From: Selaginella tamariscina
Taxonomy: Eukaryota > Streptophyta > Lycopodiopsida > Selaginellales > Selaginellaceae
Direction: 5' to 3'
DNA length: 64,000 nt
Assembly: GCA_003024785.1 (NCBI GenBank)
Contig: PUQB01000890.1
Coordinates: 1-64,000 of the forward strand
Positions 12,908-60,053 of this stretch are shown here, in pieces; the first letter of the stretch is position 1; every line of letters starts with the position of its first letter. The position numbers were made by a program, and so were the translations under genes. Under the pieces are notes generated by a model. That model was not told the DNA's origin, made no database searches, and saw only the letters and a list, made by a program, of their open reading frames with translations.

Positions 12908-12908
12908 T

Positions 12909-33836: not shown

Positions 33837-33913
33837 GTTAGTCATCTTTGTTTGTTTTTTTATTTTGTCTCCTAATCAATTGACTTGTGTGTTTGCTTTC
33901 CAGAGTTTACAAA

Positions 33914-36160: not shown

Positions 36161-36605
36161 TAATAATAAATGTGAATACACGTTAATACAATCGTTAATA
36201 ATAAACGTGAATACACGTTTGTATATAATTAATTCTATGCTGCCCAGCTCACAGTGTTCTTAATGATGTCCTCTCTAGTATCACCGATTTAATTTAATTT
36301 CTACCTTTTATGATTTGAAATATCTTCACATTTACCAATTATTCACATATTTTAAAATAAACCCTAAATATTAATGTCACATTTATTCCGTAGGGTTCAC
36401 TGTTTTCATTGCGGCTAGGGTTTTTTGGTAGATAGGGTTTACTGTTTCCATTGCGGCTAGGGTTCTTTCAATCTCAGATCTGTTTCCACTGCGGCAGATC
36501 CAGAGGGTTTCTTCAATCTCAGATCTCAGAGTTACGGTTTCCACTGCGGCGCCATCCATTTCGACTCGATTCGTGCAGCGCCCAAGTATAACAATGGAGA
36601 TTTCT
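36161..36605. promoter_or_regulatory. Duplicated promoter region, MULE copy 1
   Basis: Second copy of the AT-rich promoter segment in this element, starting at 'cgttaataataaa' right after the broken first-exon duplicate. A short repeat of 'taataataaaygtgaatac' marks the joint. It now drives, if anything, the second methyltransferase copy. Confidence 0.6.
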
Positions 36606-37563: not shown

Positions 37564-37635
37564 GTTAGTCATCTTTGTTTTTTTTTATTTTGTCTCCTCA
37601 TCAATTGACTTGTGTGTTTTTCCAGAGTTTACAAA

Positions 37636-40600
37636 ATGGTGAGAGCTTCAAAACGTCTACTAGAGACTGCGCCTGATGAAGAGCCACGGGAAGAGAAGAG
37701 GATATCGAAGCAGAAGCGAGGCAAGAGAGGAGAACCATCTAATGTAGCAAAGGAGGATCCTCCAGTGACTCAGTCTGGAGTAGTAGCAGTTGAGCAAGAA
37801 CAGCCTCCACCAACAATCACAGATTTCCCGGAGAGCTCGTCGCAGTTGCCTCCTTCATCCGCTGAGGTTGCAGTCCTGAACGAGCAAGTGCAGATGACAG
37901 AGGCAGCTGAAGCTAGCGAGGACGACTTGGAGGAGGCAGTCAGCAAAAAGAGAGGCCGCGGGAAAGCTGATTCAAAAGGCAAGAAGGCGAAGAGCGATAA
38001 GGAGCCGAAGGAGTTATACAGCATACCGGCGAGCCTGCATTTGGAGAGCTCAGCAAACCTGCTCGACAAAATTACTATCAAGGGACTTGGTGATCCTCCT
38101 GATGTGCCCATCTGCAGAATACATTCAACGAGGTGGTTCGACGAGTGAACCCAGGGGACTTGGACAGGCTGGTGTCATCGTTGAAGAAGGCTGGTTATCT
38201 ACGCAACACGGCCTTGTTCATTCTGTCCATCGGAGATCGACTCACTGCTGAGGAGCTATCGGAGCTGTCGAAGGACACGATTCAGTACGAGCAGCACCGG
38301 TCTTTCGAGCAAGCTCTTACTCAGCCGGAGTACAAACAGTGGGCTTCAAGGCTCTCAAACAGGAAGTTTAGCTGCTGGGACGGGAACCATAGGCTACAGG
38401 CTTTGCAGAAGCTGTACCGAGAGGATGCAGAGGACAACCAGCGATGGGCTATTCGCGTTCGATCGAGTTTCATCTCCACGGAGAACCTCGACATTCTTCA
38501 ACTGGTTTCGATGTTCCAATCGATTAACATGTGAGTATTTTCTTTCTTTTTGTTAAGAGTTTAGACTTACAGTTTCGTTGAACAGATCTTCAGCAACATC
38601 TGTGGAAACAACGCTACCACATATTCTCCTCGCTGTAAAGGCGGTCTGCACTAGTACAGAAGGAACTCAGAAAATCCTCGAGTCACTCACGGAGGTTGAT
38701 CGTCTTGAGGTGCGGAAGTGGAAGGAGAGTTCAGCAGGAAAGACGGCTTGGCATCCTCTTCCGAACCTGATCTGCGCAAAGATCCTTTTCAAGGTAACCT
38801 CCGATTTAATTTATAGGAAAGAAATTTTTAACTTATTCTATGTGCAGAACGAGATCGACGATGATCTCGACAGAGCAGTCACCAGTGCTAAGGGCAATCA
38901 CAGGTTGAGGTGAACCTGAAGCAGCTAGTGTACAAGAAGCATGACAAGCGTATGCACAAGTTCCTCTCCATCATAGACCCAGACTTGGGGGAGGAGTGGT
39001 TCCAGAAGGTGACAAACATCTCTCATAAGCAGTGTCGCTGGATGGGCATTGAGAAGCTGTATGCGATGTCAAGGGCGAAGATTCCAAACATGCTGCGACT
39101 CCGATACCTGAACAAGCTCACCCGTCTCGAATCCAAGGCAGAACAACAGACACTTGGGCTACCGGGCATGCAGGACAAAGAGTGGATCAAGTGGTTCACC
39201 TTGGACTTATATTGGAAGGCTGTGCGCGAGGAAGCCATTCAGATCCTTAAGGGGTTGCGAGAGGATGGTGAAGAAGTTGGAACGGATGTCGACTTCATGA
39301 GCTGGTTTGACGAGATGAGAACTCGGAGCAAGTGCCTGGTCTTTCAGCCCTTCCATGACTGCATACGGTTCACTTATTCGATGGAGCCGAATGAGTTTCT
39401 GGAGCGTGAGGAATCTGCGCGTCGGATGATATGGAGGTAAGCTTTCAATCCAGCATTGCTACTGTCTGACTTTGTGTTACAGGTTCATACTGGCGAAGCA
39501 AATGACACCGTCCCATACGATGAAGCTGTGGACAGATCATACAAGCGAGCCTCACATGTGGTCGAAGAGCAGAGGAGCTCTAACACCGTTCGAACGGGAG
39601 CATGTTCCATTCTGGCTCGACTGTCCGTCGCAACAGCCACCAGCTTGGGAGAGCTCACTATTCGACATGCACGCAATGATCTACCAGCGATTGTTTGGGA
39701 GCCAGAAGAAGTAGAGGCTATCAAGAAGAGCAAGATGAAGAAGACGGTGCGGAAGACAACTACACCTGCAAAGGGATCGGGAGCGGGACCAAGCTCTTCT
39801 ACAGCACCTCCGCCGGCATTCGACTTTACAATCAATGAGGTGCAGCCACTTGTAGCTAGTTTGGACATCAAGGACGACCTGATGACCTTCATCCCGACCC
39901 TGGCTGCATCCCGTGGATCCTACGACCTAGCTGTGTGCGACATGGAGGAGATGAGCAGGTCTTTCTTCGAGCCGGGTGCTTCCCAGACAGAGGTGTACAC
40001 CAAGCTCCGACAACAGGTTGACAGACTACATACGGTTGAGTCACAAACGTGTTCCAGGAAGTGGTAGGTGAATACGGCTTCAACCTCATCATCCTCGACT
40101 TGCCCAATGAGCTTGTATATGGAGGTGCTAGCATCAACAAGGACATTGTGCAGCTAGATCCGGTGAAGTTTGAGGAGGCCTTGCAGTTCAGTGGAATGCA
40201 CTTGGCAGCGAGTGGTTTCATGGTCGTCTTCGCGAGTTCTCCTTCTGTTTCGGCGGTGATTCAGGCGGCTGCAGTAATCAACTTGGAGGTTGCAGGGACT
40301 TACAGCGTCTACCGTGCACGAGGCTGGGGATACCGTGACAAAATTAAGGTAAGCTAGCTATTCAAGTTCAAGTTTAACTTGGTCTATGTGGCAGGATAAC
40401 TTGTTAGTTCTCTTGGTGCTGCAAAGCTCTGAGAAGAAGTCGAAGAGGCCAAACCCTCTGGCGTTGACGAACACGATCCTCGTCGACACTGCCGACCGTT
40501 ATCAGGAGGCTTGGTAAGGAAGTACTTTGCTTGTTTATCCTAATGGAAGTTTGTGCAGGATATGATTCAACCGAAGAGTGTTCGACTCATGCAGCTTTTG

Positions 40601-40834
40601 ATCGAGCGTCTCAGTAGACCTGGCGACCTAGTCTGGGATATTGGTTCCGGAACCGGGTCATCATTGTTAGCTGCCGTCGAGCTCGGAAGGAATATTATAG
40701 GAACCGAGAAGAGTTTCGAACTCTCTAGGTTGGCAACAAACAAGCTGCAGAGAACATTAGACCAGAAGATTACCTACTCAAACACCTCCACGTCCAAGCG
40801 TAACTGGTGGTTCGAGAACTGCAGCTTTACTTAA
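37636..40834 (+). pseudogene. ParB-methyltransferase, MULE copy 1
   Basis: Same six-exon gene as 48029-51255, with exons at about 37636-38530, 38586-38793, 38848-39436, 39483-40348, 40395-40513 and 40559-40834. One-base losses relative to copy 2 break it near 38130 (TTCAACG for TTCCAACG), 38896 (AATCACAGG for AATCCACAGG), 39674 (CGCAATG for CGCCAATG), 40049 (ACGTGTTCC for ACGTTGTTCC), 40561 and 40744. All splice borders are preserved. Otherwise it is almost identical to copy 2, so decay is recent, or these losses are sequencing errors. Confidence 0.88.
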
Positions 40835-40994
40835 GATGAAGAAGAAACTTTAGCTAATGTATATTGAGTAATAAATTAAGCTAATATAAAAAAAAAGATA
40901 AAATACAACAGTTTTATAGAATTTTTTTTGCCGACTGAGGCCAATACTGCCGACCAGAAAGAATATTCCAAAAATTCTAGAATGGCGGCAACTC
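40835..40994. repeat. Decayed right end of MULE copy 1
   Basis: Contains the GCCGACTGAGG and GCCGACC motifs (40930-40955) and one TTCTAGAA. The GC-rich terminal block present in copy 2 (51407-51440) is missing, so this end may no longer be mobilised. Confidence 0.7.
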
Positions 40995-42972: not shown

Positions 42973-42981
42973 TCTTGTCTT
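42973..42981. repeat. Left 9-bp target duplication of MULE copy 2
   Basis: TCTTGTCTT, repeated exactly at 51453-51461. It defines the element borders. Confidence 0.88.
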
Positions 42982-43077
42982 GGGTCTCGGCGAAAAGGAG
43001 GCTCCGGCTCAGGAGGCTTCATATTATTCTAGTATATTCGCGGATATTCTAGGGTTATTCTAGCATATTCTAGCATA

Positions 43078-43097
43078 TTCTCAAGAATATTCTAGAA
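43078..43097. promoter_or_regulatory. Heat-shock-element-like array, left end of MULE copy 2
   Basis: TTC (43078), then GAA-TTC-GAA at exact spacing (43085-43097). Further TTCTAG units precede it from about 43056. Confidence 0.55.
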
Positions 43098-43116
43098 TAT
43101 ATAGTTTTTTTAATAT

Positions 43117-43144
43117 GCCGACTGGTTTAATATACGCCGACTGG
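43117..43144. repeat. Subterminal GCCGACTGG motifs
   Basis: GCCGACTGG at 43117-43125 and 43136-43144, with a third changed copy (GCCCACTGG) just after. The core GCCGACTG is the same as in the internal array and near the right end (51338-51347). Candidate binding sites for an element protein. Confidence 0.6.
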
Positions 43145-43195
43145 CTTAATATATGCCCACTGGCTTAATAAAACATTATCCTAACCCTAAACCAT

Positions 43196-46100
43196 TTATC
43201 CTTGTAGCACGGTGGGTCATGAACTCTGTTGCATTCACCAGCAAACGGTGGACCTCCATGTCACTGAGCGATCGCCTTTGTAGAAATATGTGACTTCCGG
43301 GTTCAAACCAAGCACACGGCTATAGACGAAGTACATGTGTACACATGGGCTCCAACTTTTGCTCTTCTGAAATGTAGAACAACTGCATGAAGGATAAGTA
43401 TTAATAGTCACCTTTGCAGAGTCATTCCTGCCGACACACGAAAGCCTCCTTCCGTCCTCTAGCTGTCACTTCAACATTTCGCACACAACCTAAAAACGTC
43501 TTGGCCTTGCAGAATTCTTCTCTTGTTCCTTAGACATTTTTGTTGGAGTCCGAACCATACGTCCTTCGAAAGGTGGAATTGTTGTAGATCCAGCTCCACG
43601 TGGTGGCGATGGTGTTTTGTCCTTCTGACCCTCATCTACTCTTCCTGCCATCCCCTGTAAACCTTCCAGAACAAAGCCTGCATCTGTAGTTCTCTGACCT
43701 CCTCACTTGTCAGCTTGTTTCCTTGAGCACAGGCCAAACCGTTGGTGGTGTTGGAATACGTGACCGAAGAATTTTGCCGTTTGGCCGCGTGAAACACCCT
43801 GAATCTTTTGGGCAGAACCACATCATCTGTTGTACATACTCCTCATTCCCCAAGGCATCAATGTACATTCGTTTTCCATAGAATCCTGGTGCTGGCACTC
43901 TGCTTGGATAACCGATTGGTTTTCCACACAGAGCAGTTCCTTCCTGATTCATCCCCAAACACTTAACCTTACTGGATGCTCCGATTCGTCTGATGGCCCA
44001 CTCTGTTTGAGCAATCTCTCTCTCCGAAACCTCTTCGAACCTTAACCTCTTTCTCCTGTTGTTTTGGACCACCCGCTCTGTGTACTCTACATCATGTCTG
44101 TGTGAACGTCGAGCATCAGACTGTTCTGTTCCTGTGACTGTTCTCCTAACAGTTTGCACTCGAACGTTAGTGGTACACGTGAACTCCGGGCTGGTCAAGT
44201 GTTCCTCGCCTTCCACCAGATTAATAATTGTTGATGGAGATACACTTTTCCCCTCAGAGAGTTTGCGTTGCACTCGTTTCAACAGAGTTTCCTTCGAAGG
44301 CCCTGACCCTGTATACCTCCCTTCTATTGCCGCTTTCACCTTCGCACTCTGCATAACTGCATCGGTGAGGTCTAACATTGTCGCCTCCAGCAGTGGTACT
44401 CTTTTGGCCAATCTTGCTCTTCTTGCTCTCGCGTGAATCACTTCAGCATTGTTTGTAGTTGGAACGCTCGCGAGTCCTTCTTCTGTCATGTCTCCCAGTT
44501 CCGCCATGGAGATGTGGTCCTCATGCCTGATCCACCAAGACAGCCATGTCTTCAAAGCTCGAATGTTTGACGCTCGTCCTTCCCAAAAGACTCGAGAATT
44601 GCCAGTTGTTCTTTCTTAGATTGTTCATTCAGTGCTGCAGGCCAGGCACGAGCAAGCTTCATGTGTTCTTCGCGATGTTCTTCTGCGATCCATTTCTTTG
44701 TCACCTGACGCACGATTGCATAAAGTGAAACAGACAGCTTCTTTCCCTCCCTTTCATCTTTGCTCCGTTGTTGAATACTTGGCGCAAGGCTATCCATATC
44801 GCTCCAGCCTCATCCGACATGAAACCAGCAAAGTTGACATTCTCCAAACCCTGCTTCTTACAAACCTCTAGCATTGTGTTCAAGAACTTCAGCACTGCAA
44901 CATTATCTTCGCGGCACATATCTGCGTAAGCTATAGTCACCATGGATCTGACACTGCAAGAGAGCGTTAGATAACGAAGATTAGAAAGTGTTATGAAGAG
45001 TTTTACAACTTACAATGGGTCATAAAGGTGTATTCCAATTGTCGCCCAGTCTGGTATGCGGTGCGTGTGGTCCAGAACAACCCATTGATCATGAAGGTCT
45101 CCTCCACTTTGACACCTTCTGATGTACTCAACTCCTGAACCCGGTCCCTCAACTGTCATTTTGAAGATCAGAGGCTGCTCCTCAGCACCATGCAGTTCCA
45201 TCCCTGGAACATGTATGACGTGAATGAAAGGTATTGGCAGCTTTGTCTTCAGCTCCAGAAGACCCTCGTAACCCTCTCTAAAGTGTGTCTCCTTCTGTCT
45301 TGATTGTGTAATCCAGTCCCGAGTCCTAAAGAAAAGGTCACGTCAGTGTGTAGAGATCTAAAAAAAATACCTTCGATGGTTTGTTAGAGGTTCAAGTTTT
45401 GAGAGTAAACCAGTGTACGAGACTTCTCCTTCTTCCTTGAAAAGTTCTTCAAAGATGAGCTCACGCGCGGCTTGAAACTCAATCACTCGTTGATTGGTTC
45501 GCGGACTGCTCTTTACCACGTTGCTGACACTAGATCTGGCTCGCTGAACGTTTGAAGCTGACACTGAGGGGCTGACTGGATGCTGATGAACACCTCTGTG
45601 AATGAACAACCTTGTAAAAGAAATGTCGTCTGGCAGAATGTAGTACACATAAGCCGGACAAGTGTGCACCAGCAATGGCTCCTCTCCACAATGCTTACAT
45701 TTTATGCCTATTACTTTGCCTGTCTCAGTTGTCTTTGCCTTCTCCACAGCACCCTTGAAGTGACATTCATTTGCTTTCTTCTCAAAAGCCAAGTAGGGGC
45801 AAGTAGGATTGATGCATTGGAGATGTCCGACACATGAACTTCGACTGACTCGCGCCGGAACATGCCAGTGTGTTGTGCTCGGGTGTGTCCAATGGTAGCA
45901 GCCATCCTTGCGATTCATCCCCGAGTACTTCTCTGTGCTTTCTGTCTTAGGGGGAAGTTCGAAAATGACATTTCCATTGTATATCTGCGGTAGTTCAGAG
46001 ACTCGTTTAACTTCAGACGAACCAATGAGATCCTTCCCTATCCTACATTTGTCTGCTCTTAGAAGACACACCAGCATGGATTCCTCACGCTCCTCTGTCC

Positions 46101-46350
46101 GCAACCTGAACAACGGGCCCTTTGCCGGGCACAATGTGTAAAAGACAAACTGGTTTGATGCATTGCCTTCTGGTAACAACTCCACATCTTCTCCAGAACT
46201 CGCAGAAACTGACATCAATTGAACCACATGTATACTGAACCAACAAGGAATGTTGAAAGCAATGTGAAGATCATGTTCAAACACAAAAGCATTTCCATCT
46301 TCATCGACTGGGAAATCTTTGTCAATGCCTTCATAGGTAACTCTGGCCAT
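43196..46350 (-). pseudogene. MULE transposase, copy 2
   Basis: Cut-and-paste transposase of the Mutator superfamily. Exon 1 (46350-45371) is intact. It holds a Cys/His domain (CINPTCPYLAF ... KCKHCG ... CPAYVYYILP ... HRGVHQHPV) resembling WRKY-GCM1/FLYWCH-type DNA-binding folds. Exon 2 (45325-45014) ends near VVLDHTHR, a likely first catalytic D. Introns are 45 nt (45326-45370) and 60 nt (44954-45013). Exon 3 holds FMSDEAGAIWIALRQVF and CLFHF, the second D and H of MULE cores, then the SWIM region. One-base losses near 44714, 44590, 43722, 43683 and 43430 break exon 3. From combined exon lengths the intact protein would be about 1020 residues. Confidence 0.9.
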
Positions 46351-46848
46351 GACAACACAAGGAGAAAGCTCGGTGGTTTAGGAAAGCAAAGCAAAAGATT
46401 AAACACACTTTCTCTTACCAAAAAAAAATTACAATCGTTAACAATAAACGTGAATACACGTTTGTATATAATTAATTCTATGCTGCCCAGTTCACAGTGT
46501 TCTTAATGATGTCCTCTCTAGTATCACCGATTTAATTTAATTTCTACCTTTTATGATTTGAAATATCTTCACATTTACCAATTATTCACATATTTTAAAA
46601 TAAACCCTAAATATTAATGTCACATTTATTCCGTAGGGTTCACTGTTTTCATTGCGGCTAGGGTTTTTTGGTAGATAGGGTTTACTGTTTCCATTGCGGC
46701 TAGGGTTCTTTCAATCTCAGATCTGTTTCCACTGCGGTAGATCCAGAGGGTTTCTTTAATCTCAGATCTCAGAGTTACGGTTTCCACTGCGGCGCCATCC
46801 ATTTCGACTCGATTCGTGCAGCGCCCAAGTATAACAATGGAGATTTCT
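46351..46848. promoter_or_regulatory. Divergent promoter region, MULE copy 2
   Basis: About 500 bp shared by the two divergent genes. AT-rich near the transposase start, with AAACCCTAAA (46603-46612), two TAGGGTTTAC/TAGGGTTC-type motifs and repeated 'tttccactgcgg'. No single TATA box can be assigned with confidence. The last part probably belongs to the first untranslated exon of the methyltransferase gene, which ends at the AAG/GTATGT donor at 46897. Confidence 0.5.
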
Positions 46849-48018
46849 GTGCCGATTTAGATTCTCGGCACCATCCTGCTCAGCCGGCGGCCACAAGGTA
46901 TGTGTAATTTCTGTATTTTATGATTTGCTGCTCAAAGTATTTCTTTTTCCAGAGATATAGGGTCTTCTTATTTGTGCCGACTGAGAGCAACGGCACCATC
47001 CTGGTTCAGTCGGCAAACACAAGGTATCGTCGATTTATTTATTTTTTTCCTTGCGGCTCAAGTATACGTGTCACAATGTTTTTTTTTCAGAGTTAATGGG
47101 TCTTTCCATTTGTGCCGACTGAGAGTGACGGCACCATCCTGGTTCAGTCGGCAAAAACAAGGTATTTTCGATTTGTTTTTTTTTGCTTTCTGGCTCAAGT
47201 ATTCGTATCACAAGGTTTTTTTTTTCAGAGTTAATGGGTCTTCCCATTTGTGCCGACTGAGAGTGACGGCACCATCCTAGTTCAGTCGGCAGCCACAAGG
47301 TATGTTCGATATATTTATTTTTTGCTTTCTGGATCATGTATTCGTATCACATTGTTTTTTTTCAGAGTTAATGTGTCTTCTCATTTGTGCCGACTGAGAG
47401 TGACGGCACCATCCTTCTTCAGTCGGCAGCCACAAGGTATTTTGAATTTGTTTATATTTTGCTCTGCGGCTCAAGTATCCGTATAACAATGTTTTTTTTC
47501 AGAGTTATAGTGTCTTCCCATTTGTGCCGACTGAGAGTGACGGCACCATCCTTCTTCAGTCGGCAGCCACAAGGTATTTTGAATTTGTTTATATTTTGCT
47601 CTGCGGCTCAAGTATCCGTATAACAATGTTTTTTTTCAGAGTTATAGTGTCTTCCCATTTGTGCCGACTGAGAGTGACGGCACCATCCTTCTTCAGTCGG
47701 CAGCCACAAGGTATTTTGAATTAGTTTTTTTTTCTTTGCGTCTCAAGTATTTCTTTTAAAACAGTTAATGGGTCTTCCCATTTGTGCCGTCTGAGAGGGA
47801 CGGCACCATCCTATCTCAGTCGGCACCATTATCTCTTCTGTGCCGTCTGACAGAGTCGGCACAAACTATCTCAGTCGGCAGGTTTTTTCTTCTACATCTC
47901 TCTGCCGACTGAGAGGGTCGGCAGCATCTAGCTTGAGTCGGCAGCCACAAGGTTAGTCATCTTTGTTTGTTTTTTTATTTTGACTCCTCATCAATTGACT
48001 TGTGTGTTTACTTTCCAG
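46849..48018 (+). repeat. Array of exon-intron units upstream of the methyltransferase gene
   Basis: About eight units. The regular ones repeat every 137 bp: a 71-nt exon-like part starting AGTTAATG or AGTTATAG and ending GCAGCCACAAG, then a 66-nt intron-like part from GTAT to TTTTTTTTCAG. Each exon part holds TGCCGACTGA and TCAGTCGGCA as an inverted repeat, with a second nested one (GTGCCG ... CGGCAC). The first unit is diverged and the last is compound. The final acceptor (48017-48018) joins the exon carrying the start codon. Either a spliced leader of serial exons or an array of protein-binding sites. Confidence 0.85.
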
Positions 48019-48028
48019 AGTTCCCAAA

Positions 48029-51000
48029 ATGGTGAGAGCTTCAAAACGTCTACTAGAGACTGCGCCTGATGAAGAGCCACGGGAAGAGAAGAGGATATCG
48101 AAGCAGAAGCGAGGCAAGAGAGGAGAACCATCTAATGTACCAAAGGAGGATCCTCCAGTGACTCAGTCTGGAGTAGTAGCAGTTGAGCAAGAACAGCCTC
48201 CACCAACAATCACAGATTTCCCGGAGAGCTCGTCGCAGTTGCCTCCTTCATCCGCTGAGGTTGCAGTCCTGAACGAGCAAGTGCAGATGACAGAGGCAGC
48301 TGAAGCTAGCGAGGACGACTTGGAGGAGGCAGTCAGCAAAAAGAGAGGCCGCGGGAAAGCTGATTCAAAAGGCAAGAAGGCGAAGAGCGATAAGGAGCCG
48401 AAGGAGTTATACAGCATACCGGCGAGCCTGCATTTGGAGAGCTCAGCAAACCTGCTCGACAAAATTACTATCAAGGGACTTGGTGATCCTCCTGATGTGC
48501 CCATCTGCAGAATACATTCCAACGAGGTGGTTCGACGAGTGAACCCAGGGGACTTGGACAGGCTGGTGTCATCGTTGAAGAAGGCTGGTTATCTACGCAA
48601 CACGGCCATGTTCATTCTGTCCATCGGAGATCGACTCACTGCTGAGGAGCTATCGGAGCTGTCGAAGGACACGATTCAGTACGAGCAGCACCGGTCTTTC
48701 GAGCAAGCTCTTACTCAGCCGGAGTACAAACAGTGGGCTTCAAGGCTCTCAAACAGGAAGTTTAGCTGTTGGGACGGGAACCATAGGCTACAGGCTTTGC
48801 AGAAGCTGTACCGAGAGGATGCAGAGGACAACCAGCGATGGGCTATTCGCGTTCGATCGAGTTTCATCTCCACGGAGAACCTCGACATTCTTCAATTGGT
48901 TTCGATGTTCCAATCGATTAACATGTGAGTATTTTCTTTTCTTTTTGTTAAGAGTTTAGACTTACAGTTTCGTTGAACAGATCTTCAGCAACATCTGTGG
49001 AAACAACGCTACCACATATTCTCCTCGCTGTAAAGGCGGTCTGCACTAGTACAGAAGGAACTCAGAAAATCCTCGAGTCACTCACGGAGGTTGATCGTCT
49101 TGAGGTGCGGAAGTGGAAGGAGAGTTCATCAGGAAAGACGGCTTGGCATCCTCTTCCGAACCTGATCTGCGCAAAGATACTTTTCAAGGTAACCTCCGAT
49201 TTAATTTATAGGAAAGAAATTTTTAACTTGTTCTATGTGCAGAACGAGATCGACGATGATCTCGACAGAGCAGTCACCAGTGCTAAGGGCAATCCACAGG
49301 TTGAGGTGAACCTGAAGCAGCTAGTATACAAGAAGCATGACAAGCGTATGCACAAGTTCCTCTCCATCATAGACCCAGACTTGGGGGAGGAGTGGTTCCA
49401 GAAGGTGACAAACATCTCTCATAAGCAGTGTCGCTGGATGGGCATTGAGAAGCTGTATGCGATGTCAAGGGCGAAGATTCCAAACATGCTGCGACTCCGA
49501 TACCTCAACAAGCTCACCCGTCTCGAATCCAAGGCAGAACAACAGACACTTGGGCTACCGGGCATGCAGGACAAAGAGTGGATCAAGTGGTTCACCTTGG
49601 ACTTATATTGGAAGGCTGTGCGCGAGGAAGCCATTCAGATCCTTAAGGGGTTGCGAGAGGATGGTGAAGAAGTTGGAACGGATGTCGACTTCATGAGCTG
49701 GTTTGACGAGATGAGAATTCGGAGCAAGTGCCTGGTCTTTCAGCCCTTCCATGACTGCATACGGTTCACTTATTCGATGGAGCCGAATGAGTTTCTGGAG
49801 CGTGAGGAATCTGCGCGTCGGATGATATGGAGGTAAGCTTTCAATCCAGCATTGCTACTGTCTGACTTTGTGTTGCAGGTTCATACTGGCGAAGCAAATG
49901 ACACCGTCCCATACGATGAAGCTGTGGACAGATCATACAAGCGAGCCTCACATGTGGTCGAAGAGCAGAGGAGCTCTAACACCGTTCGAACGGGAGCATG
50001 TTCCATTCTGGCTCGACTGTCCGTCGCAACAGCCACCAGCTTGGGAGAGCACACTATTCGACATGCACGCCAATGATCTACCAGCGATTCTTTGGGAGCC
50101 AGAAGAAGTAGAGGCTATCAAGAAGAGCAAGATGAAGAAGACGGTGCGGAAGACAACTACACCTGCAAAGGGATCGGGAGCGGGACCAAGCTCTTCTACA
50201 GCACCTCCGCCAGCATTCGACTTTACAATCAATGAGGTACAGCCACTTGTAGCTAGTTTGGACATCAAGGACGACCTGATGACCTTCATCCCGACCCTGG
50301 CTGCATCCCGTGGATCCTACGACCTAGCTGTGTGCGACATGGAGGAGATGAGCAGGTCTTTCTTCGAGCCAGGTGCTTCCCAGACAGAGGTGTACACCAA
50401 GCTCCGAGAACAGGTTGACAGACTACATACGGTTGAGTCACAAACGTTGTTCCAGGAAGTGGTAGGTGAATACGGCTTCAACCTCATCATCCTCGACTTG
50501 CCCAATGAGCTTGTATATGGAGGTGCTAGCATCAACAAGGACATTGTGCAGCTAGATCCGGTGAAGTTTGAGGAGGCCTTGCAGTTCAGTGGAATGCACT
50601 TGGCAGCGAGTGGTTTCATGGTCGTCTTCGCGAGTTCTCCTTCTGTTTCGGCGGTGATTCAGGCGGCTGCAGTAATCAACTTGGAGGTTGCAGGGACTTA
50701 CAGCGTCTACCGTGCACGAGGCTGGGGATACCGTGACAAAATTAAGGTAAGCTAGCTATTCAAGTTCAAGTTTAACTTGGTCTATGTGGCAGGATAACTT
50801 GTTAGTTCTCTTGGTGCTGCAAAGCTCTGAGAAGAAGTCGAAGAGGCCAAACCCTCTGGCGTTGACGAACACGATCCTCGTCGACACTGCCGACCGTTAT
50901 CAGGAGGCTTGGTAAGGAAGTGCTTTGCTATGTTTATCCTAATGGAAGATTGTGCAGGATTATGATTCAACCGAAGAGTGTTCGACTCATGCAGCTTTTG

Positions 51001-51255
51001 ATCGAGCGTCTCAGTAGACCTGGCGACCTAGTCTGGGATATTGGTTCCGGAACCGGGTCATCATTGTTAGCTGCCGTCGAGCTCGGAAGGAATATTATAG
51101 GAACCGAGAAGAGTTTCGAACTCTCTAGGTTGGCAACAAACAAGCTTGCAGAGAACATTAGACCAGAAGAGTTACCTACTCAAACACCTCCACGTCCAAG
51201 CGTAACTGGTGGTTCGAGAACTGCAGCTTTACTTAAGATGAAGAAGAAACTTTAG
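48029..51255 (+). CDS. ParB-like/DNA methyltransferase-like fusion protein (992 aa), intact
   Basis: Six exons: 48029-48924, 48981-49188, 49243-49832, 49879-50746, 50793-50911 and 50958-51255. They sum to 2979 nt with all GT-AG borders in phase, which validates the model. Residues 1-150 are disordered and basic (KQKRGKRG; KKRGRGK at 104-110), likely nuclear targeting. Residues about 162-299 resemble ParB/sulfiredoxin domains, with CWDGNHRLQALQKL (DGNHR at 249-253). The middle part is unrecognised. Residues 766-774 (LIILDLPNE) sit where beta-class methyltransferases have DPPY. Residues 899-944 (GDLVWDIGSGTGSSLLAA ... GRNIIGTE) match the AdoMet-binding motif. ParB-methyltransferase fusions are known from phages and bacteria. 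The altered DPPY leaves catalysis in doubt. Confidence 0.85.
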
Positions 51256-51271
51256 CTAATGTATATTGAGT

Positions 51272-51277
51272 AATAAA
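51272..51277 (+). terminator. Polyadenylation signal of the methyltransferase gene
   Basis: AATAAA 17 bp after the stop codon, followed by AT-rich sequence and an A-run. The same motif follows the gene in copies 1 and 3. Confidence 0.5.
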
Positions 51278-51337
51278 TTAAGCTAATATAAAAAAAAATT
51301 AAAAAGAAATACAACAGTTTTAATAGAATTCTTTTTT

Positions 51338-51363
51338 GCCGACTGAGGCCAATACTGCCGACC
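51338..51363. repeat. Right subterminal GCCGACTG motifs, MULE copy 2
   Basis: GCCGACTGAG (51338-51347) and a partial GCCGACC (51357-51363), next to the heat-shock-type array. Confidence 0.55.
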
Positions 51364-51383
51364 AGAAAGAATATTCCAAAATA

Positions 51384-51406
51384 TTCTAGAATATTCTTGA
51401 ATATTC
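51384..51406. promoter_or_regulatory. Five-unit heat-shock-element-like array, right end of MULE copy 2
   Basis: TTC-GAA-TTC-GAA-TTC with exactly two bases between every unit, a perfect extended heat shock element. A further GAA-TTC pair lies at 51369-51376. Its place is inside the terminal repeat, downstream of the methyltransferase gene. Confidence 0.65.
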
Positions 51407-51452
51407 GAGCCCAGGCCTCCTGGGCCCCAAGCCTCCAAAATGGCGACACCTC

Positions 51453-51461
51453 TCTTGTCTT
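51453..51461. repeat. Right 9-bp target duplication of MULE copy 2
   Basis: TCTTGTCTT, identical to 42973-42981. Confidence 0.88.
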
Positions 51462-51782: not shown

Positions 51783-51825
51783 GAGTGCCGCCATTTTGGA
51801 GGCTTGGGCCCAGAGGCCTAGGCTC

Positions 51826-51848
51826 GAATATTCAAGAATATTCTAGAA
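51826..51848. promoter_or_regulatory. Five-unit heat-shock-element-like array, left end of MULE copy 3
   Basis: GAA-TTC-GAA-TTC-GAA with exact two-base spacing, matching the right-end array of copy 2 in the opposite orientation. The pattern is conserved between copies although flanking bases differ. Confidence 0.65.
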
Positions 51849-51974
51849 TATTTTGGAATTCTTTCTAGTCGCCAGTATTGGCCTCAGTCGGCAAAAAAGA
51901 ATTTTATTAAAACTGTTATAATTTCTATCTTTTTTTTTTTATATTAGCTTAATTTATTACTCAATATACATTAG

Positions 51975-54900
51975 CTAAAGTTTCTTCTTCATCTTAAGTA
52001 AAGCTGCAATTCTCGAACCACCAGTTACGCTTGACGGGGAGGTGTTTGAGTAGGTAATTCCTCTGGTCTAATGTTCTCTGCGAGCTTGTTTGTTGCCAAC
52101 CTAGAGAGTTCGAAACTCTTCTCGGTTCCTATAATATTCCTTTCGATCTCGACGGCAGCTAACAACGATGACCCAGTTTCGGAACCAATATCCCAGACTA
52201 GGTCGCCGGGTCTACTGAGACGCTCGATCAAAAGCTTACATGAGTCAAACACTCTTCGGTTGAATCATCATCCTGCACAAACTTCCATTAGGATAAACAA
52301 AGCAAAGTACTTCCTTACCAACCTCCTGATAACGGTCGGCGGTGTCAACGAGGATCGTGTTCATCAACGCCAGAGGGTTTGGCCTCTTCAACTTCTTCTC
52401 AGAGCTTTGCAGCACCAAGAGAACTAACAAGTTATCCTGCCAATAGACCAAGTTAAACTTGAACTTGAATAGCTAGCTTACTTAATTTTGTCATGGTATC
52501 CCAGCCTCATGCACGGTAGACACTGTAAGTCCCTGCAACCTCCAAGTTGATTACTGTAGCCGCCTGAATCACCGCCAAAACAGAAGGAGAACTCGCGAAG
52601 ACGACCTGAAACCACTCGCTGCCAAGTGCATTCCACTGAACTGCAAGGCCTCCTCAAACTTCACCGGATCTAGCTGGACAATGTCCTTGTTGATGCTAGC
52701 ACCTCCATATACAAGCTCATTGGGCAAGTCGAGGATGATGAGGTTAAAGCTGTATTCACCTACCACTTCCTGGAACACCATTTGTGACTCACCCGTATGT
52801 AGTCTATCAACCTGTTGTTGGAGCTTGGTGTACACCTCTGTCTAGGAAGCACCCGGCTCGAAGAAAGACCTGCTCATCTCCTCCATGTCACACACAGCTA
52901 GGTCGTAGGATCACGGAATGCAGCCAGGGTCGGGATGAAGGTCATCAGGTCATCCTTTAGCTACAAGTGGCTGCACCTCATTGATTGTAAAGTTCGAATG
53001 CCGGCGGAGGTGCTGTAGAAGAGCTTGGTCCCGCTCCCGATCCCTTTGCAGGTGTGTTGTCTTCCGCATCGTCTTCTTCATTTTGTTTCTTCTTGATAGC
53101 CTCTACTTTGTCCGGCTCCCAAACAATCGCTAGTAGATCATTGCCGTGCACGTCGAATAGTGAGCTCTCCCAAGCTGGTGGCTGTTGTGACGGACAGTCG
53201 AGCAGAATGGAACATGCTCCCGTTCGAACGGTGTTAGAGCTCCTCTGCTCTTCGACCACATGTGAGGCTCACTTGTATGATCTGTCCACAGCTTCATCGT
53301 CTGAGCGGTGTCATTTCTTCGCCAGTATGAACCTGTAACACAAAGTCAGACAATAGCAATGCTGGAATGAAAGCTTACCTCCATATCATCCAACGTGCAG
53401 ACCCTCACGCTCCAGAAACTCATTCGGCTCCATCGAATAAGTGAACCGAATGCAGTCATGGAAGGGCTGAAAGACCAGGCACTTGCTCCGAGTTCTCATC
53501 TCATCAAACCAGCTCATGAAGTCGACATCCGTTCCAACTTCTTCACCGTCCTCTCGCAACCCCTTAAGGATCTGAATGGCTTCCTCGCGCACAGCCTTCC
53601 AATATAAGTCCAAGGTGAACCACTTGATCCACTCTTTGTCCTCCATGCCTGGTAGCCCAAGTGTCTGTTGTTCTGCCTTAGATTCGAGACGGGTGAGCTT
53701 GTTCAAGTATCGGAGTCGCAGCATGTTTGGAATCTTCGCCCTTGACATCGCATACAGCTTCTCAATGCCCATCCAGCGACACTGCTTATGAGAGATGTTT
53801 GTCACCTTCTGGAAACACTCCTCCCCCAAGTCTGGGTCTATGATGGAGAGGAACTTGTGCATACGCTTGTCATGCTTCTTGTATACTAGCTGCTTCAGGT
53901 TCACCTCAACCTGTGGATTGCCCTTAGCACTGGTGACTGCTCTGTCGAGATCATCGTCGATCTCGTTCTGCACATAGAACAAGTTAAAAATTTCTTTCCT
54001 ATAAATTAAATCGGAGGTTACCTTGAAAAGTATCTTTGCGCAGATCAGGTTCGGTAGAGGATGCCAAGCCGTCTTTCCTGCTGAACTCTCCTTCCACTTC
54101 CGCACCTCAAGACGATCAACCTCCGTGAGTGACTGGAGGATTTTCTGAGTTCCTTTTGTACTAGTGCAGACCGCCTTTACAGCGAGGAGAATATGTGGTA
54201 GCGTTGTTTCCACAATGTTGCTGAAGATCTGTTCAACGAAACTGTAAGTCTAAACTCTTAATAAAAAAAAAAGAAAATACTCACATGTTAATCGATTGGA
54301 ACATTGAAACCAGTTGAAGAATGTCGAGGTTCTCCGTGGAGATGAAACTCGATCGAACGCGAATAGCCCATCGCTGGTTGTCCTCTGCATCCTCCCGGTA
54401 CAGCTTCTGCAAAGCATGTAGCCTATGGTTCCCGTCCCAGCAACTGAACTTCCGGTTTGAGAGCCTTGAAGCCCACTGTTTGTACTCCGGCTGAGTAAGA
54501 GCTTGCTCGAAAGACTGGTGTTGCTCATATTGAATCGTGTCCTTCGACAGCTCCGATAGCTCCTCAGCAGTGAGTCGATCTCCAATGGACAGAATGAACA
54601 AGGCCGTGTTGCGTAGATAACCAGCCTTCTTCAACAATGACACCAGCCTGTCCAAGTCCCCTGGGTTCACTCGTCGAACCACCTCGTTCGAATGTATTCT
54701 ACAAATGGGCACATCAGGAGGATCACCAAGTCCCTTAACAGTAATTTTGTCTAGCAGGTTCGTTGAGCTCTCCAAATGCAGGCTAGCCGGTATGCTGTAT
54801 AACTCCTTCGGCTCCTTATCGCTCTTCGCCTTCTTGCCTTTTGGTCAGCTTTCCCGCGGCCTCTCTTTTTTCTCACTGCCTCCTCCAAGTCGTCCTCGCT

Positions 54901-55189
54901 AGCTTCAACTGCCTCTGTCATCTGCACTTGCTCGTTCAGAACTGCAACCTCAGTGGATGAAAGAGGCAACTGCAACGAGCTCTCAGGGAAATCTGTGATG
55001 ATTGGTGGAGGCTGCTCCTGCTCAACTGGTACTACTCCAGACTGAGTCACTGGAGGATCCTCCTTTGCTACATTAGATGGTTCTCCTCTCTTGCCTCGCT
55101 TCTGCTTCGATATCCTCTTCTCTTCCCATGGCTCTTCATCAGGCGCAGTCTCTAGTAGACGTTTTGAAGCTCTCACCATTTTGTAAACT
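51975..55189 (-). pseudogene. ParB-methyltransferase, MULE copy 3
   Basis: Minus-strand copy from the start at 55189 to the stop at 51975-51977. The first exon runs to 54285 and has a one-base loss near 54845. ParB-type CWDGNHRLHALQKL is kept. The middle exon (53386-54213 region) is open for 275 codons. The fourth exon carries several indels (52830-53260), including a stop just before the S-Q-T-E-V segment. The AdoMet motif reads DLVWDIGSETGSSLL, with the second G of G-x-G changed to E. Non-functional. Confidence 0.88.
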
Positions 55190-55255
55190 CTGGAAAGCAA
55201 ACACAAAGTCAATTGATTAGGAGACAAAATAAAAAAACAAACAAAGATGACTAAC

Positions 55256-56232
55256 CTTGTGGCTGCCGACTCAAGCTAGATGGTGCCGACCCTCTCAGTC
55301 GGCAGAGAGATATAGAAGAACAAATCTTGCCGACTGAGATAGTTGGTGCCGACCCTCTCAGACGGCACTGAAGAGATAATGGTGCCGACTGAGATAGGAT
55401 GGTGTCGTCCCTCTCAGACGGCACAAATGGGAAGACCCATTAACTGTTTAAAAGAAATACTTGAGCCGCAAAGAAAAAAATAAACTAATTCAAAATACCT
55501 TGTGGCTGTCGACTGAAGAAGGATGGTGCCGTCACTCTCAGTCGGCACAAATGGGAAGACACATTAACTCTAAAAAAAACATTGTGATACGGATACTTGA
55601 GCCGCAAAGAAAAAATAAACTAATTCAAAATACCTTGTGGCTGCCGACTGAAGAAGGATGGTGCCGTCACTCTCAGTCGGCACAAATGGGAAGACACATT
55701 AACTCTGAAAAAAAACATTGTGATACGGATACTTGAGCTGCAAAGAAAAAATAAACTAATTCAAAATACCTTGTGGCTGCTGACTGAAGAAGGATGGTGC
55801 CGTCACTCTCAGTTGACACAAATGGGAAGACCCATTAACTCTGAAAAAAGAAATACTTTAGCCGCAAAGCAAAATATAAACAAATTCAAAATATCTTGTG
55901 GTTGCCGACTGAACCAGGATGGTGCCGTCACTCTCAGTCGGCACAAATGGAAGACCCTATTCTCTGAAAAAAGAACATTGTCACGGATACTTGAGCCACA
56001 AAGAAAAAAATAAATAAATTGAAAATACCTTGTGGCTGCCGACTGAACTAGGATGGTGCCATCACTCTCAGTCGACACAAATGGAAGACACATTAACTCT
56101 GAAAAAAAAACATTGTGAATGGATACTTGAGCCGCAAAGAAAAAAATAAATAAATCGAAAATACCTTGTGGCTGCCGACTGAAACAGGATGGTGCCGTCA
56201 CTCTCAGTCGGCACAAATGGGAAGACCCTATA
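55256..56232 (-). repeat. Exon-like repeat array, MULE copy 3
   Basis: About eight units of roughly 130-140 bp on the minus strand, with the same inverted repeats and splice-like borders as copy 2. The upstream-most unit is missing, replaced by 'ataccgggatctgccg' near 56299. Unit sequences have diverged in parallel, and some inverted-repeat arms are mutated. Confidence 0.85.
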
Positions 56233-56694
56233 TCTCTGAAAAAAGAACATTGTGACACGGATACTTGAGCCGCAGAAAAAAAATAAATAAATCGAAAATA
56301 CCGGGATCTGCCGTAGTGGAAACAGATCTGAGATTGAAAAACCCTAGCCGCAGTGGAAACAGTAAACCCTATCTACCAAAAACCTAGCCGCAATGAAAAC
56401 AGTGAACCCTACGGAATAAATGTGACATTAATATTTAGGGTTTATTTTAAAATATGTGAATAATTGGTAAATGTGAAGATATTTCAAATCATAAAAGGTA
56501 GTAATTAAATTAAATTGGTGATACTAAAGAGGACATCATTAAGAACACTGTGAGCTGGGCAGCGTAGAATTAATTATATACAAACGTGTATTCACGTTTA
56601 TTATCAACGATTGTAATTTTTTTTTGGCGAGGGAAAGTGTGTTTAATCTTTTGCTTTGCTTTTCTAAACCACCGAGCTTTCTCCTTGCATTGTC
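56233..56694. promoter_or_regulatory. Divergent promoter region, MULE copy 3
   Basis: Counterpart of 46351-46848 with the same telo-box-like motifs; partly deleted at the array side. Confidence 0.5.
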
Positions 56695-59600
56695 ATGGCC
56701 AAAGTTACCTATGAAGGCATTGATAAAGATTTCCCAGTCGATGAAGATGGAAATGCTTTTGTGTTTGAACATGATCTTCACATTGCTTTCAACATTCTTG
56801 TTGGTTCAGTATACATGTGGTTTAATTGATGTCAGTTTCTGCGAGTTCTGGAGAAGATGTGGAGTTGTTACCAGAAGGCAATACATCAAACCAGTTTGTC
56901 TTTTACACATTGTGCCCGACAAAGGGCCCGTTGTTCAGGTTGCGGACAGAGGAGCGTGAGGAATCCATGCTGGTGTGTCTTCTAAGAGCAGACAAATGTA
57001 GGATAGGGAAGGATCTCATTGGTTCGTCTGAAGTTAAACGAGTCTCTGAACTACCGCAGATATACAATGGAAATGTCATTTACGAACTTCCCCCAAAGAA
57101 AGAAAGCACAGAGAAGTACTTGGGGATGAATCGCAAGAATGGCTGCTACCATTGGACACACCCGAGCACAACACACTGGCATGTTCCGGCGTGAGTCAGT
57201 CGAAGTTCATGTGTCGGACATCTCAAATGTATCAATCCTACCTGCCCCTACTTGGCTTTTGAGAAGAAAGCAAATGAATGTCACTTCAAGGGTGCTGTGG
57301 AGAAGGCAAAGACAACTGAGACAGGCAAAGTAATAGGCATGAAATGTAAGCATTGTGGAGAGGAGCCATTGCTGGTGCACACTTGTCCGGCTTATGTGTA
57401 CTACATTCTGCCAGACGACATTTCTTTTACAAGGTTGTTCATTCACAGAGGTGTTCATCAGCATCCAGTCAGCCCTCAGTGTCAGCTTCAAACGTTCAGC
57501 GAGCCAGATCTAGTGTCAGCAACGTGGTAAAGAGCAGTCCGCGAACCAATCAACGAGTGATTGAGTTTCAAAGCCGCGCATGAGCTCATCTTTGAAGAAC
57601 TTTTCAAGGAAGAAGGAGAAGTGTCTCGTACACTGGTTTACTCTCAAAACTTGAACCTCTAACAGACCATCGAAGGTATTTTTCTTTAGATCTCTACACA
57701 CTGACGTGACCTTTTCTTTAGGACTCGGGACTGGATTACACAATCAAGACAGAAGGAGACACACTTTAGAGAGGGTTACGAGGGTCTTCTGGAGCTGAAG
57801 ACAAAGCTGCCAATACCTTTCATTCACGTCATACATGTTCCAGGGATGGAACTGCATGGTGCTGAGGAGCAGCCTCTAATATTCAAAATGACAGTTGAGG
57901 GACCGGGTTCAGGAGTTGAGTACATCAGAAGGTGTCAAAGTGGAGGAGACCTTCATGATCAATGGGTTGTTCTAGACCACACGCACCGCATACCAAACTG
58001 GGCGACAATTGGAATACACCTTTATGACCGTTGTAAAACTCTTCATAACACTTTCTAATCTTCGTTATCTAACGCTCTCTTGCAGTGTCAGATCCATGGT
58101 GACTACAGCTTACGCAGATATGTGCTGCGAAGATAATGTTGCAGTGCTGAAGTTCTTGAACACAATGCTAGAGGTTTGTAAGAAGCAGGGTTTGGAGAAT
58201 GTCAACTTTGCTGGTTTCATGTCGGATGAGGCTGGAGCGATATGGATAGCCTTGCGCCAAGTATTCAACAACGGAGCAAAGATGAAAGGGAGGGAAAGAA
58301 GCTGTCTGTTTCACTTTATGCAATCCGTGCGTCAGGTGACAAAGAAATGGATCGCAGAAGAACATCGCAAAGAACACATGAAGCTTGCTCGTGCCTGGCC
58401 TGCAGCACTGAATGAACAATCTAAGAAAGAACAACTGGCAATTCTGGAGTCTTTTTGGGAAGGACGAGCGTCAAACATTCGAGCTTTGAAGACATGGCTG
58501 TCTTGGTGGATCAGGCATGAGGACCACATCTCCATGGCGGAACTGGGAGACATGACAGAAGAAGGACTCGCGAGCGTTCCAACAACAAACAATGCTGAAG
58601 TGATTCACGCGAGAGCAAGAAGAGCAAGATTGGCCAAAAGAGTACCACTGCTGGAGGCGACAATGTTAGACCTCACTGATGCAGTTATGCGGAGTGCAAA
58701 GGTGAAAGCGGCAATAGAAGGGAGGTATACAGGGTCAGGGCCTTCGAAGGAAACTCTGTTGAAACGAGTGCAACGCAAACTCTCTGAGGGGAAAAGTGTA
58801 TCTCCATCAACAATTATCAATCTGGTGGAAGGCGAGGAACACTTGACCAGCCCGGAGTTCACGAGTACCACTAACGTTCGAGTGCAAACTGTTAGGAGAA
58901 CAGTCACAGGAACAGAACAGTCTGATGCTTGACGTTCACACAGACATGATGTAGAGTACACAGAGCGGGTGGTCCAAAACAACAGGAGAAAGAGGTTAAG
59001 GTTCGAAGAGGTTTCGGAGAGAGAGATTGCTCAAACAGAGTGGGCCATCAAACGAATCAGAGCATCCAGTAAGGTTAAGTGTTTGGGGATGAATCAGGAA
59101 GGAACTGCTCTGTGTGGAAAACCAATCGGTTATCCAAGCAGAGTGCCAGCACCAGGATTCTATGGAAAACGAATGTACATTGATGCCTTGGGGAATGAGG
59201 AGTATGTACAACAGATGATGTGGTTCTGCCCAAAAGATTCAGGGTGTTTCACGCGGCCAAACGGCAAAATTCTTCGGTCACGAATTCCAACACCACCAAC
59301 GGTTTGGCCTGTGCTCAAGGAAACGAAGCTGACAAGTGAGGAGGTCAGAGAACTACAAGATGCAGGCTTTGTTCTGGAAGGTTTACAGGGGATGGCAGGA
59401 AGAGTAGATGAGGGTCAGAAGGACAAAACACCATCGCCACCACATGGAGCTGGATCTACAACAATTCCACCTTTCGAAGGACGTATGGTCCGGACTCCAA
59501 CAAAAATGTCTAAGGAACAAGAGAAGAATTTCCGCAAGGCCAAGACGTTTTTAGGTTGTGTGCGAAATGTTGAAGTGACAGCTAGAGGACGGAAGGAGGC

Positions 59601-59853
59601 TTTCGTTGTGTCGGCAGGAAATGACTCTGCAAAGGTGACTATTAATACTTATCCTTCATGCAGTTGTTCTACATTTCAGAAGAGCAAAAGTTGGAGCCCA
59701 TGTGTACACATGTACTTCGTCTATAGCCGTGTGCTTGGCTTGAACCCGGACGTCACATATTTTCTACAAAGGCGATCGCTCAGTGAGATGGAGGTCCACC
59801 GTTTGCTGGTGAATTGCAACAGAGTTCATGACCCACCGGTGTTACAAGGATAA
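56695..59853 (+). pseudogene. MULE transposase, copy 3
   Basis: Starts MAKVTYEGIDKDFPVDEDG at 56695. Exon 1 (to 57674) carries several indels. The exon 2 donor is lost (CCGTTGTAAAACT in place of CCATTGTAAGTTG). Exon 3 (58086-59853) is open over its whole 1768 nt except for one TGA at 58930-58932, where copies 1 and 2 have CGA. Exon 3 shows FMSDEAGAIWIALRQVF, CLFHFMQSV, and the SWIM zinc finger CSCSTFQKSKSWSPCVH (about 59661-59711), which in MULE transposases lies near the C-terminus. This copy defines the true C-terminus (NCNRVHDPPVLQG). Confidence 0.9.
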
Positions 59854-59885
59854 ATGGTTTAGGGTTTATAGGATAATGTTTTATT

Positions 59886-59916
59886 AAGCCAGTCGGCATA
59901 TATTAAGCCAGTCGGC
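59886..59916. repeat. Subterminal CAGTCGGC motifs, MULE copy 3
   Basis: Two copies of CCAGTCGGCATAT about 19 bp apart, reverse complement of the pair at 43117-43144. Confidence 0.6.
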
Positions 59917-59936
59917 ATATTAAAAAAACTTATATA

Positions 59937-59966
59937 TTCTAGAATATTCTTGAGAATATTCTAGAA
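59937..59966. promoter_or_regulatory. Heat-shock-element-like array, right end of MULE copy 3
   Basis: TTC-GAA-TTC (59937-59949), a 4-bp gap, then GAA-TTC-GAA (59954-59966), the mirror of the copy 1 left-end array. Confidence 0.6.
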
Positions 59967-60053
59967 TATGCTAGAATAACCCTAGAATATCCGCGAATAT
60001 ACTAGAATAATATGAAGCCTCCTGAGCCGGAGCCTCCTTTTCGCCGAGACCCC

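What the first reader, a model, noticed from the sequence alone, without database searches (positions are those of the whole stretch)
48029..51255. A eukaryotic DNA transposon carrying an intact ParB-DNA methyltransferase fusion gene
Seen: six exons sum to exactly 993 codons with in-phase GT-AG borders. The N-terminal half has a ParB-like CWDGNHRLQALQKL block and the C-terminus has DIGSGTG...IIGTE after a P-K-S-V-R-L-M-Q-L-L-I lead, the order of beta-class N6/N4 DNA methyltransferases. Known: ParB-domain plus N6/N4 methylase fusions occur in phages and bacterial mobile DNA. Inference: the MULE captured a prokaryotic-type gene, which acquired introns and is kept as a second element gene. I know of no described plant MULE with this cargo.
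Basis: partly seen in the sequence, partly recalled or inferred. Interest (0 to 1): 0.95.

Follow-up and report, generated by a model that had tools for sequence, protein, structure and literature searches.

The report
Plant jumping gene carrying DNA methyltransferase
A high-copy plant "jumping gene" carries, beside its own mobility gene, a second gene joining a probable DNA-binding (ParB-like) part to a bacterial-type DNA-methyltransferase part, along with arrays of one short DNA motif that may be what this protein binds, which would suggest a way for mobile DNA to mark itself in a genome.

Summary
The gene is real: six GT-AG exons (48029-51255), 992 aa, inside an 8,471-bp element (42982-51452) with an exact 9-bp target duplication. 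Near-identical elements lie across this land-plant genome: 15 of 19 assessable copies have exact 9-bp duplications (0 of 342 control pairs), and 346 copies of one tip were counted. It is a transposon gene, not a host gene. The C-terminus is the SAM-binding half of a beta-class N6/N4 DNA methyltransferase (Pfam above cut-off). Motif IV reads DLPN instead of the usual D/S/N-P-P-Y/F/W, so activity is uncertain. The ParB part rests on motifs alone. The fusion is old: a second family (55-60% protein identity) keeps the ParB-like block, DLPN, motif I and four intron positions. Both families have a tandem array just before the gene (family 2 read in one copy); the arrays share one abundant 9-mer, CAGTCGGCA (15 and 18 copies), a palindrome in family 2. 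Best reading: a protein that recognises the element's own arrays to regulate or un-silence it, working like Arabidopsis VANC but built from an unrelated protein. My searches found no described MULE with this cargo.

The parts
42982..51452 (.). Complete element copy B (8,471 bp); tips GGGTCTCGGCGAAAAGGAGGCT... and, on the other strand, GAGGTGTCGCCATTTTGGAGGCT...
42973..42981 (.). Left 9-bp target-site duplication TCTTGTCTT
51453..51461 (.). Right 9-bp target-site duplication TCTTGTCTT
43186..46350 (-). Transposase gene (about 46350-45371, 45325-45014, 44953-43186; the end by transfer from L012); frame broken in exon 3 of this copy; intact 1,019 aa in L012
   Evidence: C-terminal piece matches SWIM at 19.9 bits, cut-off 19.6; whole protein 13.9 bits, below cut-off
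46944..47751 (.). Tandem array, 137-bp unit x5.9, six exon-like 71-nt cores; the wider motif region 46848-47960 holds 17 of the element's 19 AGTCGGCA sites
43110..43170 (.). Subterminal repeat at the transposase end, TGCCGACTGG-type motifs (43116, 43136)
51337..51364 (.). Subterminal motifs at the methyltransferase end (TGCCGACTGAG and TGCCGACC)
48029..48924 (+). Exon 1 of the ParB-like/methyltransferase gene; CWDGNHRL at 48767-48790 (aa 247-254)
48981..49188 (+). Exon 2
49243..49832 (+). Exon 3
49879..50746 (+). Exon 4; candidate motif IV DLPN at 50495-50506 (aa 771-774)
50793..50911 (+). Exon 5
50958..51255 (+). Exon 6; motif X/I region (Pfam N6_N4_Mtase aa 898-953), DIGSGTG from 51037
51785..60052 (-). 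Copy C of the element, inverted, tail to tail with B, reading frames broken
36187..40983 (+). Copy A, truncated, gene frameshifted
25253..34265 (+). Copy 0, truncated and interrupted by an LTR-retrotransposon-like insert (26594-30409)

Best explanation
This is the second gene of a very recently active Mutator-like (MULE-type) DNA transposon of a land plant. Its protein joins an N-terminal ParB/Srx-like block, a middle region of unknown fold and a C-terminal beta-class amino-methyltransferase half. Proposed mechanism: the protein recognises the 9-mer CAGTCGGCA, probably as a dimer on inverted copies as ParB does on parS. That motif is arrayed in the element's own leader and also lies near its ends. 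The protein then acts there to keep the element's promoters open or to control transposition, either by methylating adenine or N4-cytosine on the element or by occupying the DNA with a methyltransferase-fold body. SHOWN: mobility, both genes, conservation of the fusion, arrays in two families (one copy of family 2) that share only this motif in number. INFERRED: that this protein (not the transposase or a host factor) binds the motif; that it methylates; that the result is anti-silencing; that a copy with both genes intact is autonomous.
For: TSD 9 bp exact in 15 of 19 and one mismatch in 2 more, with up to 2 bases of slack at each tip; same test on cross pairs 0 of 342. 346 copies of the transposase-end tip with at most 3 mismatches, reversed-pattern control 0. 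Intact 1,019-aa transposase plus the gene in one 8,458-bp copy, L012 (its 992-aa gene is identical to the window's). PF01555 E=1.1e-8, 35.8 bits, cut-off 26.7; 7.4e-9 for a family-2 composite. PF01555 genome-wide: 739 candidates, 150 scored, all 150 over cut-off; by exon-6 frame length most of these look like family 2, three loci read in detail. Codon positions 1/2/3 differ 0.34/0.235/0.62 over 469 codons, dN 0.33, dS saturated. Family 2 keeps CWDGNHRL and four intron positions. CAGTCGGCA occurs 15 times in the family-1 leader and 18 times in the family-2 leader; every other shared 9-mer listed has a minimum count of 1. 65 of 65 AGTCGGCA in the window lie in element copies. Array unit number varies 5-7 among 20 copies, like VANC-target repeats (abstract of PMC10398659; passages of PMC5735166).
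Against: No binding, expression or methylation data. Motif IV is DLPN in both families; the aromatic residue is missing. The half of the domain before motif X, tested alone, aligned over only 30 columns at 51% probability, not including DLPN. The ParB fold was not confirmed by any profile or model. The motif also lies near both ends, where transposase-binding sites usually lie, so the transposase may be the binder. The family-2 transposase, and so a whole family-2 element, was not read. The family-2 leader and ParB block come from a single copy, whose frame is broken.
Confidence: 0.5

Rival explanations
1. Transposition cofactor: the protein binds the motif at the ends and in the leader to help the transposase assemble or to time transposition (as Dam methylation does for Tn10/IS50, or as MURB is thought to help MuDR; recalled), with no role against silencing.
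For: The motif lies in both subterminal regions as well as the array; near-identical copies at different sites show efficient transposition.
Against: 17 of 19 motif copies in element B sit in the leader of this gene, not at the ends. Two transposase truncations are each shared by 5 of 20 copies, and 7 of those ten copies have exact TSDs, so little seems needed in cis.
Confidence: 0.25
2. Catalytically dead methyltransferase fold used only as a DNA- or SAM-binding regulator (METTL14-like; recalled).
For: DLPN in place of (D/N/S)PP(Y/F/W) in both families. Pfam matches only profile positions 164-219 of 221.
Against: Two of the eight phage enzymes fetched have DLPY, one residue away. Motif I and residues around DLPN are invariant between the families.
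Confidence: 0.35
3. The motif is bound by the transposase or a host factor, and the methyltransferase gene is unrelated to it.
For: Subterminal transposase sites are common in DNA transposons (recalled). The motif contains CG and CCG, plausible for a host methylation reader.
Against: In both families the dense motif block lies directly before the methyltransferase gene.
Confidence: 0.25
4. Artefact or ordinary host gene caught next to a transposon.
For: None beyond the absence of database relatives.
Against: The gene lies between the two element tips in 19 of the 20 fetched copies (one tip not found in L016), at sites with unrelated flanks.
Confidence: 0.02

Closest known systems
VANDAL MULEs with VANC (Arabidopsis; PMC5735166 passages; PMC10398659 abstract)
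   Same: MULE with an extra gene; a short motif concentrated in tandem repeats of the element's non-coding regions; repeat number varies among copies.
   Different: VANC is described as a sequence-specific DNA-binding anti-silencing protein; no methyltransferase domain is mentioned in the passages seen. Here the protein has an N6/N4 methyltransferase half and a ParB-like block; binding and anti-silencing are untested.
ParB-methylase fusions of prokaryotes and their mobile DNA (e.g. Bce_0392; PMC5512222 passages)
   Same: ParB-like block plus an adenine-methylase-type domain in one protein.
   Different: Eukaryotic gene with introns, a long middle region without detected relatives, DLPN motif IV, inside a DNA transposon; ParB part at motif level only.
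DIRS retrotransposons with Dam-like methylase, and dinoflagellate/charophyte retrotransposons with DNMTs (PMC5890265 passages)
   Same: Eukaryotic mobile elements carrying DNA methyltransferases, possibly marking their own DNA.
   Different: Those are retrotransposons with Dam-type or C5 enzymes; this is a DNA transposon with a beta-class N6/N4-type domain.
Fungal DNA transposons with TET/JBP dioxygenase, and oomycete MuDR/Harbinger with SET methyltransferase (PMC12730594 passages)
   Same: DNA transposons, some MuDR, carrying an epigenetic enzyme.
   Different: Different enzyme classes and hosts; no motif array was mentioned in the passages seen.

Membership tests
Mutator-like elements (MULE) | 8-10 bp (typically 9) target-site duplication | tested here: met
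   15 of 19 exact at 9 bp, 2 with one mismatch; control 0 of 342
Mutator-like elements (MULE) | Terminal inverted repeats | tested here: inconclusive
   Short imperfect TIRs by eye (GGGTCTCGGCGAAAAGGAGGCT / GAGGTGTCGCCATTTTGGAGGCT)
Mutator-like elements (MULE) | MULE DDE transposase domain (PF10551) | tested here: inconclusive
   No PF10551 match. D, D and CxxH spacing looks MULE-like by eye (signature recalled)
Mutator-like elements (MULE) | SWIM zinc finger (common, not universal) | tested here: inconclusive
   19.9 bits vs cut-off 19.6 on the C-terminal piece, but 13.9 bits in the whole protein
Beta-class N6/N4 DNA methyltransferase (PF01555) | SAM-binding motif X/I region | tested here: met
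   35.8 bits vs 26.7; hhalign P 1.7e-16 over 70 columns against eight phage enzymes chosen from its own tblastn hits
Beta-class N6/N4 DNA methyltransferase (PF01555) | Catalytic motif IV (D/N/S)-P-P-(Y/F/W) before motif I | tested here: not met
   DLPN in both families; only a global alignment places it on D-[PLI]-P-Y. Filed as methyltransferase-fold, not as a proven enzyme
ParB/Srx superfamily | Profile or fold match | tested here: inconclusive
   ddrB-ParB E=0.2; none; AF2 pLDDT 37.9
ParB/Srx superfamily | DG-x-hR-h core motif in a beta-alpha arrangement | tested here: inconclusive
   CWDGNHRL present and invariant between two families at about 60% identity; motif recalled, secondary structure not established
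VANC anti-silencing system | Sequence-specific binding and loss of silencing marks | not testable with these tools
   Only the array/motif anatomy could be compared

The most novel reading that the evidence does not exclude
A DNA transposon encodes its own ParB-like, parS-array-guided DNA methyltransferase that writes a non-5mC mark (6mA or 4mC) on its own copies to escape plant silencing. Protein and binding array have been kept together through the divergence of two element families.
Probability: 0.25. Interest if true: 0.94.

Novelty: new variant of a known kind. Interest (0 to 1): 0.8.

Why it matters
Whether N6-adenine or N4-cytosine methylation does anything in plant genomes is disputed (recalled), and how transposons defeat silencing is known for only a few systems. 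Here the enzyme-like gene, its likely binding array and hundreds of copies sit together, so self-targeted DNA marking by a eukaryotic transposon can be tested directly with long-read methylation calls and a binding assay. If only binding is found, it is still an independently evolved parallel to VANC that uses a prokaryotic-type module.

Tried and rejected
Host gene beside a transposon: rejected. Recent capture with later gain of introns: rejected, since family 2 shares the fusion and introns. Close prokaryotic or viral donor: none found. The 5.8-billion-protein searches scored 8000 candidates (no hit) and 5030 (two weak hits, E 0.3 and 0.78, PF01555 proteins). The scans of viral contigs and genome contigs were keyed on two middle-region peptides only, so a donor of the end domains alone would be missed. 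tblastn on phages matched 677 records (limit E=10); the 30 listed cover only the C-terminal part, most annotated as DNA methylases. The ParB region gave one hit at E=2 in phages (DNA primase), and the loop-less ParB piece ten at E=9 in plasmids (adenylate cyclase); none is ParB. Fold of the ParB region: pLDDT 37.9, no use. Organism: assembly size and contig number fit my recollection of Selaginella tamariscina; the paper searches did not confirm it, so only "land plant" is claimed. Print searches for a MULE or plant element with this cargo found none: (listings) and passages of six papers.

Full report
WHAT WAS CHECKED. The gene lies inside an 8,471-bp element at 42982-51452 whose flanks repeat TCTTGTCTT exactly. 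The window holds three further copies: C, inverted and tail to tail with B; A, truncated; and copy 0, broken by an LTR-like insert.

IT IS A MOBILE GENE. A DNA search of the 300.7-Mb own genome listed 41 matches (40 of 886 first-look candidates were scored). 38 span the gene: 34 at 100% after rounding, three at 99%, one at 94%; one of the 38 stops two bases short. I fetched 20 of these 38 with flanks. In 19 both tips could be placed: 15 have exact 9-bp duplications, two have one mismatch, two do not match (4 and 2 mismatches). The same test on flanks of different copies gave 0 exact of 342. A 35-base tip pattern occurs 173 times on each strand with up to three mismatches, the reversed control 0. 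The gene is intact in 11 of the 20 (these 20 were picked by similarity to it). The transposase is intact in one of 20 by my splice model, L012, whose 992-aa gene is identical to the window's. Some indels may be assembly noise, but two transposase truncations are each shared by five copies. WRKY gives 45 matches, all over cut-off, in this genome and none in 14 prokaryote controls, so the host is a land plant.

THE PROTEIN. Pfam finds only N6_N4_Mtase, E=1.1e-8, at aa 898-953. The best PHROGs matches are phage DNA methyltransferases over the same region. PDB gives MboIIA at 0.0021, or 0.00017 with the two-family profile, plus CcrM and DpnA. A profile alignment of both families to eight phage methylases gives P=1.7e-16 over 70 columns of the motif X-I region; those eight were chosen from the protein's own hits. 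A global alignment puts DLPN (aa 771-774) on the D-[PLI]-P-Y motif, but the half before motif X, tested alone, aligned only 30 columns at 51% probability and not at DLPN. The order would be beta-class: motif IV, then motif I 150 residues later. Two of the phage enzymes have DLPY, so only the aromatic residue is changed, but it is changed in both families. Activity must therefore be tested, not assumed.

THE PARB-LIKE PART. CWDGNHRL and its surroundings look like the ParB/Srx core (recalled), but no Pfam profile reached significance, PDB searches gave nothing, and the AlphaFold model had pLDDT 37.9. The block is conserved at about 60% identity in family 2, so it matters, but its fold stays a motif-level inference.

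A SECOND FAMILY. Searching PF01555 in the genome gave 739 candidates; 150 were scored and all 150 are over the cut-off, many with a 106-aa exon-6 frame unlike ours. Three loci read in detail (L042, L043, L045) belong to a family about 55% identical over aa 442-992 (the second row is a composite). Differences by codon position are 0.34, 0.235 and 0.62 over 469 codons, with dN 0.33 and dS saturated: strong past constraint on the protein. Introns 1, 3, 4 and 5 lie at the same places (for intron 5 the clean border is in L045/L046, while L042 has one base less there); intron 2 was not covered. The fusion is thus an old, stable second gene. Family 2 has tip-like ends of its own, judged by eye in three loci.

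THE ARRAY. Directly before the gene, family 1 has 5-7 copies of a 137-bp unit. Each holds a 71-nt core bounded by CAG and AAG|GT, as if it were a repeated leader exon, with an inverted pair TGCCGACTGA...TCAGTCGGCA. The one family-2 leader read has 7.8 copies of a 40-bp unit whose consensus holds the perfect palindrome CCCAGTCGGCATGCCGACTGGG. The two leaders share one abundant 9-mer, CAGTCGGCA: 15 and 18 copies. The next shared 9-mers have a minimum count of 1. In the window all 65 AGTCGGCA lie in element copies (26.7 kb) and none in the other 37.3 kb. One copy lies near each end of element B, and a matching site lies near the family-2 3' end in L043 and L045 but not in L042. A motif kept while everything around it changed is best explained as a protein-binding site, and palindromy suggests a dimer. 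That the binder is the 992-aa protein is inference.

HOW IT PROBABLY WORKS. Arabidopsis VANC proteins bind short motifs in tandem repeats of their own MULE and remove silencing (abstract of PMC10398659; passages of PMC5735166). The anatomy here is the same in kind, with a different protein. I therefore favour self-recognition through the array, followed by methylation or occupancy that keeps the element active. Rivals are a transposition cofactor, a dead methyltransferase fold, or the transposase as the binder.

LITERATURE. Eukaryotic elements with DNA-modifying cargo are known: DIRS with Dam-like methylase and retrotransposons with DNMTs (PMC5890265, passages); fungal DNA transposons with TET/JBP and oomycete MuDR with SET methyltransferases (PMC12730594, passages). 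The MULE survey PMC6446971 mentions extra ORFs; the words methyltransferase, methylase and ParB do not occur in its text (find), nor in that of the 2026 review of gene capture by plant elements, PMC13317346 (find). No MULE or plant element with this cargo turned up. Subscription papers and bioRxiv preprints are largely outside that library, and Repbase was not searched.

Noticed in passing
43023-43100 and 51368-51406: Arrays of GAATATTCTAGAATATTC-like sequence just inside both tips, resembling heat-shock elements (nGAAnnTTCn, recalled); a similar AT-rich repeat lies near the family-2 3' end.
   Followed up: no
46953-47710: Six 71-nt cores with splice-acceptor-like and donor-like edges: possibly a leader made of duplicated non-coding exons.
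   Followed up: partly
L016, L022, L023, L025, L026; L011, L020, L021, L027, L028: Two transposase truncations, each shared by 5 of the 20 fetched copies (212 aa; 563-564 aa); 7 of these ten copies have exact TSDs, so lineages with a broken transposase still spread, presumably in trans.
   Followed up: partly
8318-13119 and 26594-30410: Two related LTR-retrotransposon-like elements, each with 211-213-bp ends about 99.5% alike and polyprotein-like ORFs; the second is inserted inside element copy 0.
   Followed up: no
6385-8060, 13119-22990, 34266-36086: Other repeats with several pieces, roughly 74-93% identical, between the MULE copies; not identified.
   Followed up: no
51453-51784: Copies B and C stand tail to tail only 332 bp apart in inverted orientation.
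   Followed up: no
59974-60102 and 51755-51905: Copy C shows no obvious matching 9-bp duplication by eye, unlike B; perhaps rearranged.
   Followed up: no
43710-44615: The C-terminal part of the transposase gives a sub-threshold match to DUF951 (17.9 bits, cut-off 25, in the whole protein of L012), a small zinc-binding-looking patch of unknown meaning.
   Followed up: no
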